This document shows positions 16,302 through 24,524 of a stretch of DNA of 64,000 bases, one piece after another. The stretch spans positions 806,001-870,000 of the forward strand of contig JAWZSP010000003.1 in assembly GCA_034401135.1 (NCBI GenBank), written 5' to 3'. Both the position numbers and the translations under genes were made by a program. The notes under the pieces are model-generated. The model did no database searches, was not told where the DNA came from, and worked only from the letters and a program-made list of their open reading frames with translations. Each line of letters begins with the position of its first letter. The first letter of the stretch is position 1. Origin of the DNA: Volutella citrinella. Its lineage: Eukaryota > Ascomycota > Sordariomycetes > Hypocreales > Nectriaceae.

Positions 16302-19300
16302 CTACGGCTCGCCCTTGATCTTCTTCGTCGCCTTGGCGGTTCCGATGTGCGTGTTGTGAACCTGCATCCTATTAGTTGCTGATATGGTGGCAGAGCGGAG
16401 AGGGAACTTACCTTGTGAGCGAATCGTAGACTCGTCAGAGTCTCTTTCAGATGCGTCTCCAGCGGTGACACCATTACAAACATGAGCGTCTTGCTGTTTC
16501 CTCCCAGCGAGTACTGTAGGAGGTGCGTGAGCTTGGAGTTGCGGTATGGAATGTGGCCGGAGCCACGGCCGAGAGCCTCAATCACGTCGCCCAAGCAGCT
16601 CAGGCTCTTGTTGATATTTTGCGTCTCCTTCATCCGGTCGCCCTCGGCCTGCGAGTGCTTCAGGCGCTCAGAGCCTGCCAGATCCACCAGGTTGAGCGTG
16701 CCCTCGCATCGCTCCCCAGTCGCCGAGTTTTCTCCTACAAGCTTGAGGATGAAGATGCTGTGCGATCGGGACGAGCGCTCGTTGGCCTTGGTCGCTGCAA
16801 CGGAGCGGTTGTTTTGCGCCTCCTCCAGCATCATCTCCACAGTGGATGGGCTGTTGAGGTGCACCGTCCTGCAGTTGAGAATGGCAGTCTGCTTGCGGGC
16901 CTCGTCGTGTCGAATCTCGAGCTTCTTGGCCCTGCCATCTGCACGGTCGTTGGGCGTCAGGAGATCATTGAGCTCCTCGTTGTACACCTCCACGAACGAG
17001 CCCTCCATTGAGTACTCCCATGACTTCTCCTTGAGCTTGGTGACGGTATCGTAAATCATGTGTGTCGCCCGAGGAATCATGCCGTCCGCAGACGACATGG
17101 TGTATGTCTTTCCGGAACCGGTCTGGCCGTAACAGAAGATGCAGACGTTGAAGCCATCCAGCGCACTCTGCACGAGCTGCGAAATCTCGCCAAAGATCTC
17201 TTCGTTCTGAGTGCCAGGGACGAAAACACGGTCAAACTCAAAGGGATAATTCTTCCGCGTCACATTGCCGAGACTGCTGCGCTCCTCAGGACCAGCGAGG
17301 ACAATCTCCGTCGACGTCTTGTCATCAGGGAATGACATGCCGGCCTCCTCGCCCTCGCTAGGACCCATCGGAGGACGCACACGACACATGACACGGATGT
17401 TGCCCTTGAGTTCTTGGTACTTATTAAACAGCACGCGTCGCTCTGTTTCTTCTTTGATGAGCTTCTCCTGTGCAATCTCGGCGACTCGGAGAGCGTCCTG
17501 GAGGCGGGATTCCATGCTGGCGAAGGAATCGGACTGGGCCTTGCTGTCAGACTCCAGGAACTCGACGTGGGACTTGAGGGAGTTGATCTTGGCTTCTAGA
17601 GTTGTGTTGGCTGCCGACAGTTCGGCAATATTGGTCTGGAGGCTGTTCTTGAGTGACCGTTCTCGTTGGAGATCTTCCCGGAGGCCCTCCATTTGTGACT
17701 TGTGTTCTTGGAGGTCCCGTTCCTTCCGCTGAAGGGACATGTCCATGTCTTGGTGCTCGTTGCCCATCCGAGTGCGCAGCTCCTGGATCTCGCGATCCTT
17801 CTTCTGTCGCTCATCTTCCATCTCTTGTTGATAGTGTCGAGTCAGACCCTCGATGCGTTGCTCATGCTCCTTGGCTTCATGATCTTTCATGTAGTCGATC
17901 TCTCGGCTGAGTTGGTCGACGGCCTCTCGATGTTGGCGTGACATGTCGTCGGTGGTCTCTTTGTGCCTCCGCTCAACCTCTTCCAGCCCGCGGTTGTACT
18001 CCCAGCTTTGTTTTTCCATCTCGTGCCGGATATGGCGGGCTTCCTCTCGCGCAGTATCAAGTTCCGTGTTCAAGGATTCGTTCCTTCGTTCGAGTCGCCC
18101 TCTATCGTCCTCAAGTTCCCGCACTACTGCTGTCAATAATAGCCAGTGAGAGACGCCGAGCAAGCTTACCTCGTGTCTTAATTAGCTCGAGAGCATCGTC
18201 TTGGCCTTTCCGTTCGCTCAGAGTAGTGTTGACCATCTCCTTAAACTCCTTAAACTGCGACTCCATATCGACGACTCGGCTGTCCACGTCCCAGGCTACA
18301 TATGAAGTAAGGTTAGAATCTTTGCTCAAATACGTTTTATGATAGGGAGACTTGATGGGCGATCGAGATCCTTTGGTTGGGGATAAAGAGTGCAGGGAGT
18401 CTTCCAACTGGCTGAGCTTCCGCTGAAACTGCTGATCCGTAGGTGTCTTGGGAGGGACTTCCTATATCCCCTCAGACTCCACGGCAAAAACACTTGCATC
18501 TGCCTTGTTGTTTGTCCTTTCCTTGGATGGGCGTTTGGTTGTGACGTGACGTAGGTGGGAGCTATTCTGCGGTGGTGGTGAGGGCGCCGAGGGAGCTAGG
18601 GAACAAGAGATCGCTTGATCTCCGTCAGGCAGGGTTGACTTGCCATCGTCGAGACTCATCTTGTTGAATTTGGTAGTCAGAGAGTCATCTCGCTGGGTCG
18701 TCCATGTTGGCGCATTATCCGCTGCTCTGACCTTGTTGTAGTGGAGAGGAGCAAAAGGCTGAGATTCAAAAGAATTATTCGTACCATTGTTTCCGGGTCT
18801 GGTGGTGTCGGTTCGGTCGTCGTCGCGGGGCCCGTGGGCCGTTCTTGGGCGTGGCGCTTGGCTCTTCGACCTGGCGTGTCCAGGTTTTGCGTGGGTTCGT
18901 GAGCGATCGGTCGTGGGTTGTCTGCCGGGTCCCATGCTTTTGGCGAAGCTGCTTGAAGATGATGTCGACGCGCTCGGCATGTGGCGCGTAGTCTGGTAAG
19001 CTGTGGGCTGCTTGAGCTGGATAGAGGGTCAGCGCCGATGCAAATATCAAGTCGAATCTTGGAGCTTCCGACTAGGACAGTCGATTATTCTTACCCCAGA
19101 CACGCTGGCCAGACTCTGGCCCTTCACCGTTGGCCGAGCGGCAGTGGGTGCAATGGACGGCTTAGCTGGGTACTCGAGAGCTCGATCGGACAGTGGTTTG
19201 CGCTTGGCGTCTGACTGCGAGGCTACTGTGGGTTAGCATTACCGACCCTCTTTCATGTTCCAGCGACCCATACCAGGCTGGGGGATCTCGCGCTTGAGCG

Positions 19301-19424
19301 TCTTGAAGCTCGACAGCGGCACTCCCATGGCCGTCTGCGGCCTGACATTGTGCTGTGAGTCGCTCCATTCCGAGAGGCCAGCGCCTCCTCCCATCATCGA
19401 CGATGGAGCCGGTAGCCGACTCAT
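16302..19424 (-). CDS. klpA: Kinesin-14 C-terminal motor (KlpA/Kar3 type) with an in-frame TAG
   Basis: Five exons: 19424-19274, 19225-19095, 19010-18170, 18126-16412 and 16361-16302; 965 codons if the internal TAG is read through. Residues 1-375 are a Ser/Pro/Arg-rich tail with K-R-K-P-L and S-K-S-Q-A-P-R-P microtubule-binding-like patches. About 376-612 is a long coiled coil. From about 613 the motor domain begins with N-I-R-V-M-C-R-V-R-P. It carries the P-loop GQTGSGKT (708-715), switch I NERSSRSH and switch II LVDLAGSE. A motor at the C-terminus identifies minus-end-directed kinesin-14, which works on the spindle and cytoplasmic microtubules. The frame is open across exon 3 except for TAG at 18464-18462 (codon 277). 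No frame shift or good intron removes it. Either the stop is real, is edited in RNA, or is a sequence error. The first in-frame ATG is at 19424. Confidence 0.85.
18462..18464 (-). other. In-frame TAG inside the kinesin-14 frame
   Basis: The minus-strand codons run G-I-stop-E-V-P-P-K-T-P with the same frame on both sides. The flanks look like normal coding sequence: the upstream exon part extends unbroken from 19010 and the downstream part runs unbroken to the donor at 18169. Removing the TAG by splicing would need a donor such as GTCACA about 84 nt upstream, which is a poor site, and no branch-point motif lies at a usable distance. Confidence 0.8.
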
Positions 19425-20343
19425 CTTGGAACTTCGAAATGGCTGCAGGAAAGCTCGGGTCAGTCCCAAAACACAAACTATCGAGAGTGGAACTCTTCTG
19501 TTTATACCTGGTTCTCAGACGGGGCGGCTTCCATGGTTTGCGAGGAACGATTGCGCGAGTGCAGCAAAAACACTGCTGCAGCGAGGACGGGAATCAACAA
19601 GAGCAGCGCGCCGCCTCGTGCTGCGGGTTCGGGATGCGTGGTGAAAGGGGGGAAGTGTGTATGGAGGGGAGAGAGAGGCGCTCTTGGTCTCTCCCAGGTG
19701 TCACCGTTGGCTAGTTTGGCCTTGTATTCTGTTTGGCGCGGGCCGGCGTTGTCTGGCTTGGGCGGAGCCACAGTCTTTTGCGCGTGGGCGTCGGCGTGCG
19801 TTGATGAGATTGGCCTAGTCCCGAGACAGCCCACCCAAGTCGTGGGCGAGATTGGCGATGCCACAGCGTTTGTTTATCACGGCTTGGCTGGTGTCATGGT
19901 TGCCCGGGGAACGGGGGCGCATTTTTGGATTCCCCAACTCCACATGTGGCTGGTGTCCTTCCCCATCCCTCCACTGTGGCGCGTGCTTCGTCGGCTGAGT
20001 AAGCTATCAATCGCGGTGGGCCGCTGGTGCCCAGCGTGGGGGACAGCTTACAACACAGGTAGCGGCCAAAAGTTGCGACTCCATGGCTTCTTTCACATGT
20101 CATCCAACACCATGACGCCGCCGCGTCGTGTCCTTTGATTTGAGACGCCCACCCGCAACCAAGATACCGCTTTATCTTCTCTCGCGGTCTTTTCACGACC
20201 TCAGCTGCCGCTCCACTGCCGGCGGCTCCGCAACCCCTCCAAACTTCGCCGACTGCTGGCCTCCCATGTCTCGACAGATCGCCATAGCTTCATTTTCTCC
20301 CATCTAGACTCCCCTCGTCCCCGATAAGCCCCGATAAGCCACC
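19425..20343. other. Divergent promoter region of kinesin-14 and the acyltransferase gene
   Basis: About 0.9 kb between two divergently transcribed genes. No independent gene is supported. Pyrimidine-rich stretches just upstream of 20344 are typical of a fungal 5' leader. Confidence 0.5.
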
Positions 20344-21377
20344 ATGGAGAAATTCAGCCAGTTCCGCGATAGAGGTTAGTTCAAAGAAAACAGAAAGCCA
20401 ATAGCCCATCATGCGCTGACAGAACTCCAGCGACTGGCATTGCGCCTTTCCTCCCCGTCACCACGCCGCTCACCGCTGTCTCGACACTCACTCACAGCCT
20501 CATATTCATCTGCCGCCTGCCCTTCTTCCTCTTCTATGCCATCGGCTACTTTCTGTTCTTCCACTACCTGCCGCTCCCGGTCGTCTTCCGCAAAGTTGCC
20601 CTCTGGGGCCTGATTTCGATACCAGGCATCTGGTGGGTTGACCTCCAGCTCGATGGTGTCAAGCGCGGTACCCTCGCCGACCAACCCCGCGAACGCGTGC
20701 CGCATCCGGGCTCAGTCATCGCCGCGAACTTCACGAGTCCCATCGATGCCATCTACCTCGCCGCCATCTTCGACCCCATCTTCACCATCTCGTACCCCGA
20801 CACTCGCAAGGTTCAAAGAATCGGCCTGTTGGGCGCCGTCATGCAGGCACTCGCACCTGTCCGCACCCATGCTCCATCCAATGCGAAGCTTATCGACCTT
20901 AAGGATCTGCTCGCGCAGTACCCAGACCGAGTCATCGCGATATTCCCCGAGTGTGGAACTACAAACGGAAAAGCTATCCTCCCATTCAGCCACAGCATCC
21001 TCGACACGCCTCCCAATGTCCACATCTTCCCGGTTAGCATCCGATACACCCCATCCGACGTCACTACTCCTGTTCCTGGCAGGGGTTTGAGCTTCCTATG
21101 GAACCTGCTGTCCCGCCCGACCACTTGCATCCGTGTGCGCATTGCTGAGGGGCAGATGAATACGTCTGCTGCTCAAACCAATGGTGCCTCATCATCCAAG
21201 CCGGCACCTGAATTGAGACACCGAGGCGAAGCTGGAGCGGGCGCTTCCAGTGATGAGCAGCGTGTGCTCGACCGCATAGGCGAGGCTCTGGCTCGCCTCA
21301 GCCGTGTCAAGCGTGTGGGCCTGACGATGAAGGACAAGGCATCCTTCATCAGCGCTCTCCGTGGAAAGAAGGCATAA
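20344..21377 (+). CDS. Lysophosphatidic acid acyltransferase-like protein (Loa1/Vps66 type)
   Basis: Two exons, 20344-20374 and 20431-21377, 325 aa. Residues about 20-80 hold two hydrophobic segments (T-H-S-L-I-F-I-C-R-L and F-F-L-F-Y-A-I-G-Y-F) that would anchor it in the ER or lipid-droplet membrane. The PlsC-type acyltransferase fold follows. The motif I position reads NFTSPID at 110-116, where most family members have N-H-x4-D, so the catalytic histidine is replaced by phenylalanine. The substrate-binding motif III is FPECGTTNG at 182-190, intact apart from the usual Cys variant of the yeast Loa1/Vps66 branch. Family members transfer acyl chains to lysophosphatidic acid for triacylglycerol and membrane lipid synthesis. 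The C-terminal 90 residues are a polar, Ser/Ala-rich then basic tail. Assignment to the fold is firm; activity is uncertain because of the missing His. Confidence 0.8.
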
Positions 21378-21818: not shown

Positions 21819-23718
21819 TCATAGTCCGCCGTCTGTCACGCAGCCCTTGCTAGCGTCCGTCACGAGTTTGGCGTACTTGGCCAAGGTACCACGGTGGTAG
21901 CGCGGCTCGGGAGCCTTCCAGGCCTTGCGGCGGCGCTCAAGTTCCTCCTCGGAGACCTTGAGGTCAATGGCGCGCGACTCGGCATCAATGATGATGGTGT
22001 CGCCATCCTCAACAAGGGCAATGGGACCACCCTCCATGGCCTCGGGAACAACGTGGCCGATAATGAAGCCGTGAGAACCGCCAGAGAATCGTCCATCGGT
22101 AAGCAGAGCGACATCCTTGCCAAGACCAGCTCCCATGATGGCAGAAGAAGGCTTCAGCATTTCAGGCATACCGGGACCACCCTTGGGACCGTCATATCGA
22201 ATAATGACGACAGTCTTCTCGCCCTTCTTGATTTCGCCGGCCTCGAGGCTGGCGATGAACTCGGGCTCGGAGTTGTAGGCACGGGCCTTACCCTCGAAGC
22301 GGAGACCCTCCTTTCCGGTGATCTTGCCAACACAACCACCAGGGGCCAGGTTACCACGGAGAATCTGGATGTGGCCAGTGGGCTTGATAGGGTTGCTGAA
22401 AGGTCGGATGATAGTCTGGTCCTCGGGGAAGCCCTTGACGTTCTCGACGTTCTCCTTCATGGTCTTTCCAGTGACGGTGATACCGGAGCCGTCAATCAGA
22501 CCCTCCTTGAGGAGGAACTTGAGCAGAGCAGGAGTGCCACCAATATTGTGCAAATCGGCCATGACCCACTTTCCGGAAGGCTTCAGGTCAGCAAGGAAGG
22601 GGGTGCGATCGGAGACCTTCTGGAAGTCCTCAATGTCGAGCTCGATGCCAACGGAGTGGGCGATGGCGATGAGATGCAGGACAGCGTTGGTGCTGCCACC
22701 AAGGATGGTGGTAACAATCATGGCGTTCTCGAAGGCCTGTCGGGTCATGATGTCTCGGGGTCGGATATCCTCCTTCAGAATGTTACGGATGGCGGGGCCG
22801 ACGGCCTGGCACTCGGCAAGCTTGGCGGGGTCCTCAGCAGGGCTGCTGCTGCTTCCAGGGAGCGTGAGACCAAGAGTCTCGATAGCAGTGGCCATGGTGT
22901 TGGCTGTGTACATGCCACCGCAAGCGCCGCTTCCAGGGCAGGCGTGGCGGATGATGTCGAAACGCTGCTCCTCGGTGATCTCGCCAGTGATGTACTGACC
23001 GTAGGCCTGGAAAGCGGAGACAATGTCGAGAGACTCGCCGGCCTTGGAGCATCCAGGCTTGATAGTGCCGCCGTAGACCATGATACTGGGACGGTTCACT
23101 CGGCCCATGGCAATGGCCACACCGGGCATGTTCTTGTCGCATCCGGGCAAGCTAATGTTACCGTCGTACCATTGGCCGTTCATGACGGTCTCGATACTGT
23201 CGGCAATGATCTCTCGGCTCTGAAGAGAATATCGCATACCAGTGGTACCCATGGAAATACCGTCGCTGACACCAATCGTGTTGAATCGGTAGGGAATGAG
23301 ACCAGCCTTGGCAACGGACTCCTTGACAACCTTGGACAGGTCCATCAAGTGCATGTTGCAAGGGTTGCCCTCGTACCAGACAGACGAGATACCGACCTGA
23401 GCCTTGTTCATGTCGTCCTCGGAAAGACCGGTGGCGTACAGCATAGCCTGGGAGGCACCCTGGGACTTGGGCTGGGTGATGGCCGACGAGATCTTGTTGA
23501 GCTTGTCATCGGCAGCTCGGAGGGCGGTGGTGGACAGGAGGCGGCTGTCGGTGAACGTTAGCTCTGAAGCAATTGGCTCTCGAAGCATCCGTGTGTAGAA
23601 TCTCGAAGCTATGAGGATCATCGTGGTTGATGGATGCTTACCTGGTGCCCTTGGAGAGGCGGGCGGTGCCCAGAGCTCCCAGAGCTCGGGACCGCATGTG
23701 CATTGAGCGGGACAACAT
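21819..23718 (-). CDS. ILV3: Dihydroxy-acid dehydratase, mitochondrial (branched-chain amino acid synthesis)
   Basis: Model of two exons, 23718-23642 and 23601-21819, 619 aa. The enzyme dehydrates 2,3-dihydroxy-isovalerate and -methylvalerate to the keto acids preceding valine, leucine and isoleucine, in the mitochondrial matrix, with an Fe-S cluster. The cluster cysteines are in [15 protein letters not shown] and [14 protein letters not shown]. The family stretches [15 protein letters not shown] and [17 protein letters not shown] are also intact. The N-terminus, [12 protein letters not shown], is rich in Arg and Ser without acids, a good mitochondrial presequence. The predicted intron is only 40 nt, unusually short, but it links the ATG-bearing presequence exon to the main frame in phase. 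The uninterrupted main frame runs upstream without an ATG giving a presequence. Product certain; first exon likely. Confidence 0.95.
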
Positions 23719-24524
23719 GGTGGCGGGACAAGACGACGGGAGCCCGTGTCAGAACAATGCTGATGCAATTGGAGCTGAAACGGGTGCGGTGATTGCACGC
23801 GGATATGGCGACTCGGACGGTGCAATGACTTCCTCGTCAATGGCAGTGTGGGTTAGCCGGAGGAGAAGGGTGACTGAGTCGACGGGGACTGGGAATTTCT
23901 AACCAGAAGCGATGTCGGCTGGCGCTTGCCAAAATTTCCCACTTTCCCTGTGATCTTCCCTGTGACCTAGGCCACAAACTCCCCGCTGGAGCTCCCCGCA
24001 TGACAATTCGACCTCGCTGATTGGCTCCCACAGCTCGCCTCACCTGCAGCAGCCACTGAACCACAGCGGGCGGGAAGGCGGTCTTGGTGCCCGCGGAAAC
24101 GCAGCTTGGCTAGCACAAGGCTTCGCAACCCTCCTTTATCAAGCTCTTAGTGGCGCGCACACTTTCATTTGCACTCTTGCTACAGTAACTCACTAGCCTG
24201 TGTCCGGCGGATGAAGCTTCAATGGAGATCCATGAACACAAATCTCCAAAGGTTGCCGCATTCCCGTCGATTTTGCGTTTTGCCCCATCATCCACTTGCT
24301 CAACTTTGGAGACACCGCCCGATGCCGGCATGGGTCTATCGATGGAGAAGCTGACCGCAATTCCGTGCATGCCGCAAGAACTAAGCAGGGTGGTCTATTA
24401 TGCCCATTGTATTCTGGCTCGGTATCGTCTATCTTCGTAACATGCGATGGCGAAAGTCTATACTGTCTAAACAAAGAAACGGCCGTTCCGGTTGACCTCC
24501 CTTCCATCAGTTGCCCCCGCTCCT
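23719..24524. other. ILV3 upstream region, no other gene
   Basis: Contains the promoter of the minus-strand ILV3 gene. A TGACTGAGTCG block at about 23872-23882 resembles, but does not match, the TGASTCA general amino-acid-control element. Short frames at 24110-24520 have no domain. Confidence 0.45.

What the first reader, a model, noticed from the sequence alone, without database searches (positions are those of the whole stretch)
18462..18464. In-frame TAG in an otherwise intact kinesin-14: possible stop-correcting A-to-I RNA editing
Seen: exon 3 of the kinesin-14 gene is coding on both sides of one TAG (codon 277), in the same frame and without any indel. The motor, coiled coil and all splice phases downstream are intact, so the gene has not decayed. 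No good intron removes the stop. Known: Sordariomycetes (Fusarium, Neurospora) perform A-to-I mRNA editing during sexual development, preferring an adenosine with U before and G after. This includes UAG to UGG changes that restore otherwise interrupted proteins. Inference: this TAG is in exactly that context, so the full 965-aa kinesin may be made only in fruiting bodies, with a 276-aa tail fragment made otherwise.
Basis: partly seen in the sequence, partly recalled or inferred. Interest (0 to 1): 0.78.

Follow-up and report, generated by a model that had tools for sequence, protein, structure and literature searches.

The report
Kinesin stop codon inside optional intron
The odd stop codon in this fungal kinesin gene sits inside a long stretch that cells can probably splice out, so the normal motor protein needs no rescue; but the stretch also encodes a conserved protein segment, and the stop sits in an RNA hairpin of the type that fungal RNA editing prefers.

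Summary
The TAG is real: minus strand 18464-18462, the one stop in an otherwise open frame of a kinesin-14 (KlpA/Kar3 type). The claim that no good intron removes it is wrong. One donor/acceptor pair (GTACGA at 18784, TATGTAG ending at 18296, CTAAC branch point; 489 nt = 163 codons) removes it and gives an 818-aa protein, 79-81% identical to seven Fusarium, Ilyonectria and Dactylonectria models. Of 135 listed orthologue models, 99 lack the segment, 26 keep part or all, 10 are uninformative. So the ordinary kinesin probably needs no editing. The intron is unusual: retained, it adds a segment conserved as protein in five Hypocreales families, like a plant exitron, with SPxK (CDK-like) sites. In this genome retention meets TAG at codon 294. 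That A is third in a predicted 7-nt hairpin loop, the tRNA A34 geometry (6 of 1028 TAGs in the window match), and the same genome carries an in-frame TAG in a Cbk1-like kinase where edited PUK1 has its stop. A retention-plus-editing isoform, as in FgBUD14, is possible but unproven: no RNA or relatives' DNA was available. Residues opposite the TAG in the four best-aligned relatives are P, K, T, S, never W.

The parts
18462..18464 (-). in-frame TAG, codon 294 of the intron-retained frame
18296..18784 (-). optional 489-nt intron (163 codons, 3n) containing the TAG; donor GTACGA at 18784, acceptor TATGTAG ending at 18296
   Evidence: the one in-frame stop-removing pair in the scan; same junction in most orthologue models; single copy in the genome
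18312..18316 (-). CTAAC branch-point motif, inside TTCTAACCTTACTTCATATGTAG
   Evidence: sequence; 55 of 3623 YAG sites in the window have CTAAC within 27 nt upstream
18453..18471 (-). predicted RNA hairpin: 6-bp stem, 7-nt loop AUAGGAA (18465-18459); the TAG's A (18463) is loop base 3
18645..18692 (-). conserved peptide block RDDSLTTKFNKMSLDD in the intron frame (R-D/E-S-S-L in relatives)
18345..18383 (-). SPTKGSRSPIKSP cluster in the intron frame (CDK-like sites; CDK consensus is recalled)
19508..19534 (-). kinesin exon 1 with ATG
   Evidence: start and junction match orthologues
19274..19442 (-). kinesin exon 2
19095..19225 (-). kinesin exon 3
18785..19016 (-). kinesin exon 4 (upstream of the optional intron)
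18170..18295 (-). kinesin exon 5 (downstream of the optional intron)
16412..18123 (-). kinesin exon 6: coiled coil and most of the motor
16302..16361 (-). kinesin exon 7 with normal stop

Best explanation
The TAG lies in an optional, frame-preserving 489-nt intron of a KlpA-type kinesin-14. Splicing removes intron and stop together and makes the ordinary 818-aa motor, with no editing needed (sequence signals and orthologue models shown; splicing in this species inferred). Transcripts that keep the intron read on in frame into a conserved 163-residue tail segment (conservation shown). In this genome they stop at codon 294 and would give a 293-residue tail fragment, unless the UAG is edited or read through (inferred).
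For: The one in-frame donor/acceptor pair in the scan that removes the TAG and leaves no stop is 18784/18296. CTAAC branch point upstream of the acceptor; 55 of 3623 YAG sites in the window have one. The spliced product is 818 aa, 79-81% identical to five Fusarium, one Ilyonectria and one Dactylonectria model, and kinesin-14 by Pfam and PDB match to Kar3. Of 135 listed orthologue models 99 lack the segment: 88 by script (recounted), 11 more by eye. Records of F. fujikuroi include spliced models and one with the whole segment open (P0053, P0077; P0005), so the intron is not only a device to dodge a stop, though the frame in the spliced strains was not seen. GC3 of the segment is 0.52, against 0.71 in the motor exon and 0.66 in exon 4. 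One copy in the genome.
Against: Gene models are predictions; PMC4817773 reports 69 further genes like PUK1 in F. graminearum where a predicted intron only dodged an edited UAG. The intron is long compared with the other five of this gene (46-78 nt). Its frame is conserved as protein, which a mere intron would not need. Codon usage does not separate it from constitutive exon 4 (scores 0.050 and 0.076). No RNA was available.
Confidence: 0.85

Rival explanations
1. Double gate (an extension of the best explanation, not its opposite): in sexual tissue the intron is partly retained and the UAG is edited to UGG by the Tad2-Tad3 machinery, giving a 981-aa kinesin with a CDK-site-rich tail; FgBUD14 is the model.
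For: U at -1, G at +1, A at +3, as preferred in F. graminearum (PMC11156358, parts 1 and 2 read). The A is base 3 of a 7-nt loop at five window sizes; 6 of 1028 TAGs in the window do this, 138 of 1028 lie in some hairpin loop at all five. A PUK1-like in-frame TAG exists in this genome. Peptide after the TAG is no less conserved than before it in 5 of 5 comparisons. PMC11156358 states that FgBUD14 has both editing and alternative splicing of the intron holding its site.
Against: The hairpin is not clearly more stable than shuffles (z +0.5, -1.2, -1.7, +0.35). Opposite residues are not W in any relative that covers the place. F. fujikuroi and the other whole-segment models have no stop there, so this is no order-wide editing site. 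PMC4817773 puts only 0.9% of editing sites in introns. No RNA.
Confidence: 0.3
2. Neutral nonsense change (the other reading of the best explanation): the TAG merely truncates a minor retained isoform in this lineage, with no editing; splicing hides it from selection.
For: Splicing removes it; codon bias of the segment is weak; the segment is less conserved than the constitutive tail in each of six relatives compared, and the aligned position is variable.
Against: The frame is otherwise open and the peptide after the stop shows no extra decay, though a young change would look the same.
Confidence: 0.5
3. One reading: no intron here; the whole kinesin depends on editing.
For: PUK1-type annotation artefacts are documented (PMC4817773, PMC11169179, passages); the segment is conserved as protein.
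Against: Consensus splice signals with a single in-frame solution; a species with an open frame also has spliced models; low GC3.
Confidence: 0.06
4. Sequencing or assembly error at the codon.
For: Only one assembly; reads not available.
Against: Single-copy locus in a 26-contig assembly, frame intact on both sides.
Confidence: 0.04

Closest known systems
FgBUD14 of Fusarium graminearum (premature-stop-correction site in alternatively spliced intron 2)
   Same: UAG with U at -1 inside an alternatively spliced intron of a coding gene
   Different: Editing and splicing were observed there (as told in one passage of PMC11156358; original paper not seen); here neither is observed
PUK1 / stk-21 class of premature-stop-correction genes
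   Same: single in-frame UAG, predicted hairpin loop, frame intact on both sides
   Different: a good intron shared with orthologue models removes this stop; opposite residues are not W
Exitrons (term recalled, from plant and human work)
   Same: intron inside coding sequence, length 3n, retained frame coding and conserved
   Different: retention not shown by RNA; this copy carries a stop
KlpA/Kar3 kinesin-14
   Same: C-terminal motor, coiled coil, 818-aa spliced form
   Different: optional 163-residue tail segment

Membership tests
Kinesin-14 (KlpA/Kar3) | C-terminal kinesin motor closest to Kar3/Ncd | tested here: met
   Pfam PF00225 at 503-802 of 818; best PDB match Kar3 neck and motor, E=3.5e-107
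PUK1-like PSC-edited gene | in-frame UAG that no genuine intron removes | tested here: not met
   intron 18784..18296 removes it, by sequence and orthologue models, not RNA
PUK1-like PSC-edited gene | U at -1 and A in a hairpin loop | tested here: met
   predicted folds
PUK1-like PSC-edited gene | A-to-G in sexual-stage RNA | not testable with these tools
   no RNA reads held
FgBUD14-like (PSC site in an alternatively spliced intron) | UAG inside an optional intron | tested here: met
   by sequence and orthologue models only
FgBUD14-like (PSC site in an alternatively spliced intron) | both editing and retention observed | not testable with these tools
   no RNA
Exitron | intron within coding sequence, length multiple of 3, frame conserved as protein | tested here: met
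   489 nt; local alignment of the segment beat all 300 shuffles for 17 of 18 partners, 13 of the 18 being Fusarium (count checked)
Exitron | no stop in the retained frame | tested here: not met
   one TAG in this genome; none in the 7 whole-segment models of relatives, which as protein models cannot show one
Exitron | both isoforms present in RNA | not testable with these tools
   no RNA

The most novel reading that the evidence does not exclude
An order-wide optional coding intron in kinesin-14 adds a CDK-site-rich tail. In this lineage it has come under a second lock, a UAG placed in a tRNA-anticodon-like hairpin, so that the long kinesin needs intron retention plus A-to-I editing and appears only during sexual development (karyogamy or meiosis).
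Probability: 0.25. Interest if true: 0.65.

Novelty: new member of a known kind. Interest (0 to 1): 0.42.

Why it matters
It shows how a stop codon that looks like an editing site can sit harmlessly in an optional intron, and it points to a conserved protein segment hidden in a kinesin-14 intron across Hypocreales. I found no printed account of it in the listings of searches (0, 16, 1 and 15 of 61 papers listed; none of these was read for it). If the double gate were real, splicing and editing would together switch a spindle/karyogamy motor between vegetative and sexual life, which one RNA-seq set could test.

Tried and rejected
The intron-5 acceptor was moved from 18130 to 18124 because orthologues read TRVKELE. 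A region-only protein search with the intron peptide found nothing at E<=10 (422 candidates): by sequence search alone the segment is weakly conserved; full-length and profile searches found the retained models. Codon usage did not prove coding: the frame scored 0.050, another sense frame 0.061, exon 4 itself 0.076, and 4 of 1000 base shuffles reached 0.050.

PUK1 hunt: three DNA patterns gave 30, 0 and 1 places (for the first, the reversed control pattern gave 42, so no excess). Eleven of these 31 places were read and none was a kinase. Of 136 kinase matches I read those in 6 loci and in 12 fetched regions, mostly ones listed with a TAG. Four of the 6 loci (L016, L033, L037, L038) were first read on the wrong strand; one search read them again on the right one. 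Only L064 had a TAG inside an invariant motif; one search also scanned all 67 loci then held, both strands, for that motif. The matched stretches of the DNA methylases and SPO22 had no stop. Motor hits L001, L006 and L008, listed with a stop, were read: one stop of L006 is at an ordinary intron acceptor; none showed in the printed frames of L001 and L008.

The scans of viral, prokaryote and metagenome contigs were not used. No structure prediction was run.

Full report
The observation. Minus strand 18464-18462 reads TAG, in frame with open sequence on both sides. With the start codon that orthologues share (19534), it is codon 294. The frame of the surrounding 489 nt has this one stop; the other two sense frames have 5 and 9. 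A Markov null expects 5.7 stops and gives P(<=1)=0.02, so the frame is kept open beyond chance, though not overwhelmingly.

The gene. The spliced product is a kinesin-14: Pfam Kinesin at 503-802 of 818 and a best PDB match to Kar3 neck plus motor. It is 79-81% identical to seven models from Fusarium, Ilyonectria and Dactylonectria, 73% to one from Metarhizium and 71% to one from Trichoderma (nine compared). The assembly has 45.1 Mb in 26 contigs, and the 489-nt segment occurs once.

The stop is in an intron. In most orthologue models the protein passes from ...EEDRYEAPTNN directly to AWDVDGRVVDMESQF. In the window the same junction is AAT G|GTACGA...TTCTAACCTTACTTCATATGTAG|CC TGG, 18784 to 18296. 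In a scan of 19016-18170 with GTRNGN/GTRAG donors and YAG acceptors (40-700 nt, multiple of 3), this is the only pair that removes the stop and leaves none, and it has a branch-point motif; 55 of 3623 YAG sites in the window have CTAAC within 27 nt upstream. Weaker GT donors and GC donors were not scanned. I classified 135 orthologue models, the best 120 of each of two searches that had 250 and 177 hits. A script found 88 without the segment (19-32 residues between the RPRTAH-like motif and DVD), 19 keeping part or all, and left 28 (recounted). Reading those 28 by eye gave 11 without it, 7 keeping part or all (P0103, P0111, P0113, P0121, P0122, P0123, P0130) and 10 that start downstream. Totals: 99 without, 26 with part or all, 10 uninformative. 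Many are strains of one species, so they are not independent.

A caution. Liu et al. 2016 (PMC4817773, passages read) found 69 more F. graminearum genes in which automated annotation invented an intron to avoid an edited UAG, and the CHE1 paper (PMC11169179, passages read) reports such introns in F. poae and F. fujikuroi for its gene. Annotation alone is therefore weak evidence. What argues for a real intron is that F. fujikuroi records include both spliced models (P0053, P0077) and one with the segment fully open (P0005), though the frame in the spliced strains was not seen; the consensus signals at exactly that place; and the low GC3 of the segment: 0.52, against 0.71 in the motor exon and 0.66 in exon 4.

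The intron also codes. Seven models keep the whole segment: Fusarium fujikuroi, Cladobotryum, Trichoderma harzianum and T. aggressivum, Paramyrothecium (flagged LOW QUALITY by its source), Conoideocrella and Ophiocordyceps. Families by taxonomy: Nectriaceae, Hypocreaceae, Stachybotryaceae, Clavicipitaceae, Ophiocordycipitaceae (Trichoderma placed from memory). Local alignment of the window's segment, without the splice-signal end, beat all 300 shuffles for 17 of 18 partners; for P0080, which has only the last part, 17 of 300 shuffles did as well (partner count checked). The block RDDSLTTKFNKMSLDD has R(D/E)SSL opposite in 11 of 11 relatives that cover it, with a looser L-x-L-x-D after it. All 13 rows that reach the end, the window's included, have at least one [ST]PxK or [ST]PxR; P0015, whose model drops that piece, was not in that set. 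The last residues (DSNLTSYV) overlap the branch point and acceptor, so their conservation may reflect splicing. Against strong constraint: only species with an open frame would be modelled as retained; the segment is less conserved than the constitutive tail (identity 0.29-0.55 against 0.48-0.66 over six relatives); a search with the segment alone found nothing; codon usage gives little support, though exon 4 scores hardly better (0.050 and 0.076). A Pfam scan of the pre-TAG piece found nothing.

Editing context. The review PMC11156358 (parts 1 and 2 of 3 read) gives the preferences: U at -1, A or G at +1 and +3, hairpin loops, as for tRNA A34 edited by Tad2-Tad3. This site has U, G and A at those places. 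The predicted hairpin places the A third in a 7-nt loop, AUAGGAA, at five window sizes; 6 of 1028 TAGs in the window, this one included, do so, and 138 of 1028 lie in some hairpin loop at all five. The stem pairs have probability 0.65-0.76, the outermost 0.44-0.45. The fold is not unusually stable (z +0.5, -1.2, -1.7, +0.35). The 7-nt, position-3 criterion was chosen after seeing the fold; its match to A34 geometry is from memory.

Does this species edit? L064 is a kinase best matching Cbk1 that reads MAPEVVTNQKYDGRCDW-TAG-SIGIILYECLYG; its A is predicted in a 6-nt hairpin loop. PUK1 has tandem UAGs in kinase subdomain IX, F. verticillioides only the second (PMC4817773, passages), and the Neurospora orthologue stk-21 is an AGC/NDR kinase with Cbk1 as best hit (PMC3591445, passages). 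L064 fits the second-stop form; that it is PUK1 is inferred, since no PUK1 sequence was compared. It suggests that the lineage uses premature-stop correction.

For and against editing of the kinesin site. Post-TAG/pre-TAG identities to five relatives are 0.41/0.38, 0.55/0.29, 0.42/0.38, 0.42/0.41 and 0.40/0.34 (partners split by hand; the 0.29 rests on 21 positions). So no decay after the stop, as expected for a young stop or a corrected one. Against: residues opposite the TAG are P (F. piperis), K (Paramyrothecium), T (Conoideocrella) and S (Ophiocordyceps); in the other rows that cover the place the alignment is loose and shows other residues, none of them W. FgBUD14 shows that an editing site inside an alternatively spliced intron exists (PMC11156358 passage; original not seen), but only 0.9% of F. 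graminearum editing sites were intronic (PMC4817773 passage).

Verdict. The main kinesin very probably does not depend on editing. The TAG affects only an intron-retained isoform that looks functional in relatives. Whether that isoform is rescued by editing here is open; I put it at about 0.3. I found no printed account of this intron in the listings, but the library lacks most subscription journals and those papers were not read for it.

Noticed in passing
L064 (G000:C1:3688700-3689900), TAG at about genome position 3689503: NDR/Cbk1-like kinase with in-frame TAG inside the invariant DWWSxG motif (DW-TAG-SIG), the place of the edited stop in PUK1/stk-21; likely a conserved premature-stop-correction site in this species.
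   Followed up: partly
window 18169-18124: Intron 5 of the kinesin ends in a CAGCAGTAG run of three possible acceptors (tandem acceptor); orthologues favour the last.
   Followed up: partly
window 18486-18525 (approximate): About a dozen residues just before the TAG (around KERTNNKADASVF) have no counterpart in the 8 relatives that cover the spot: a lineage-specific insertion next to the stop.
   Followed up: no
P0111, P0113 (orthologue models): Two models start at a Met inside the second half of the optional segment, an annotation pattern that the CHE1 paper links to upstream premature stops.
   Followed up: no
window 20345-21377 (+) and 21822-23852 (-): Neighbouring genes: an acyltransferase-like ORF and a dihydroxy-acid-dehydratase-like ORF (names from reading the translations, recalled).
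   Followed up: no
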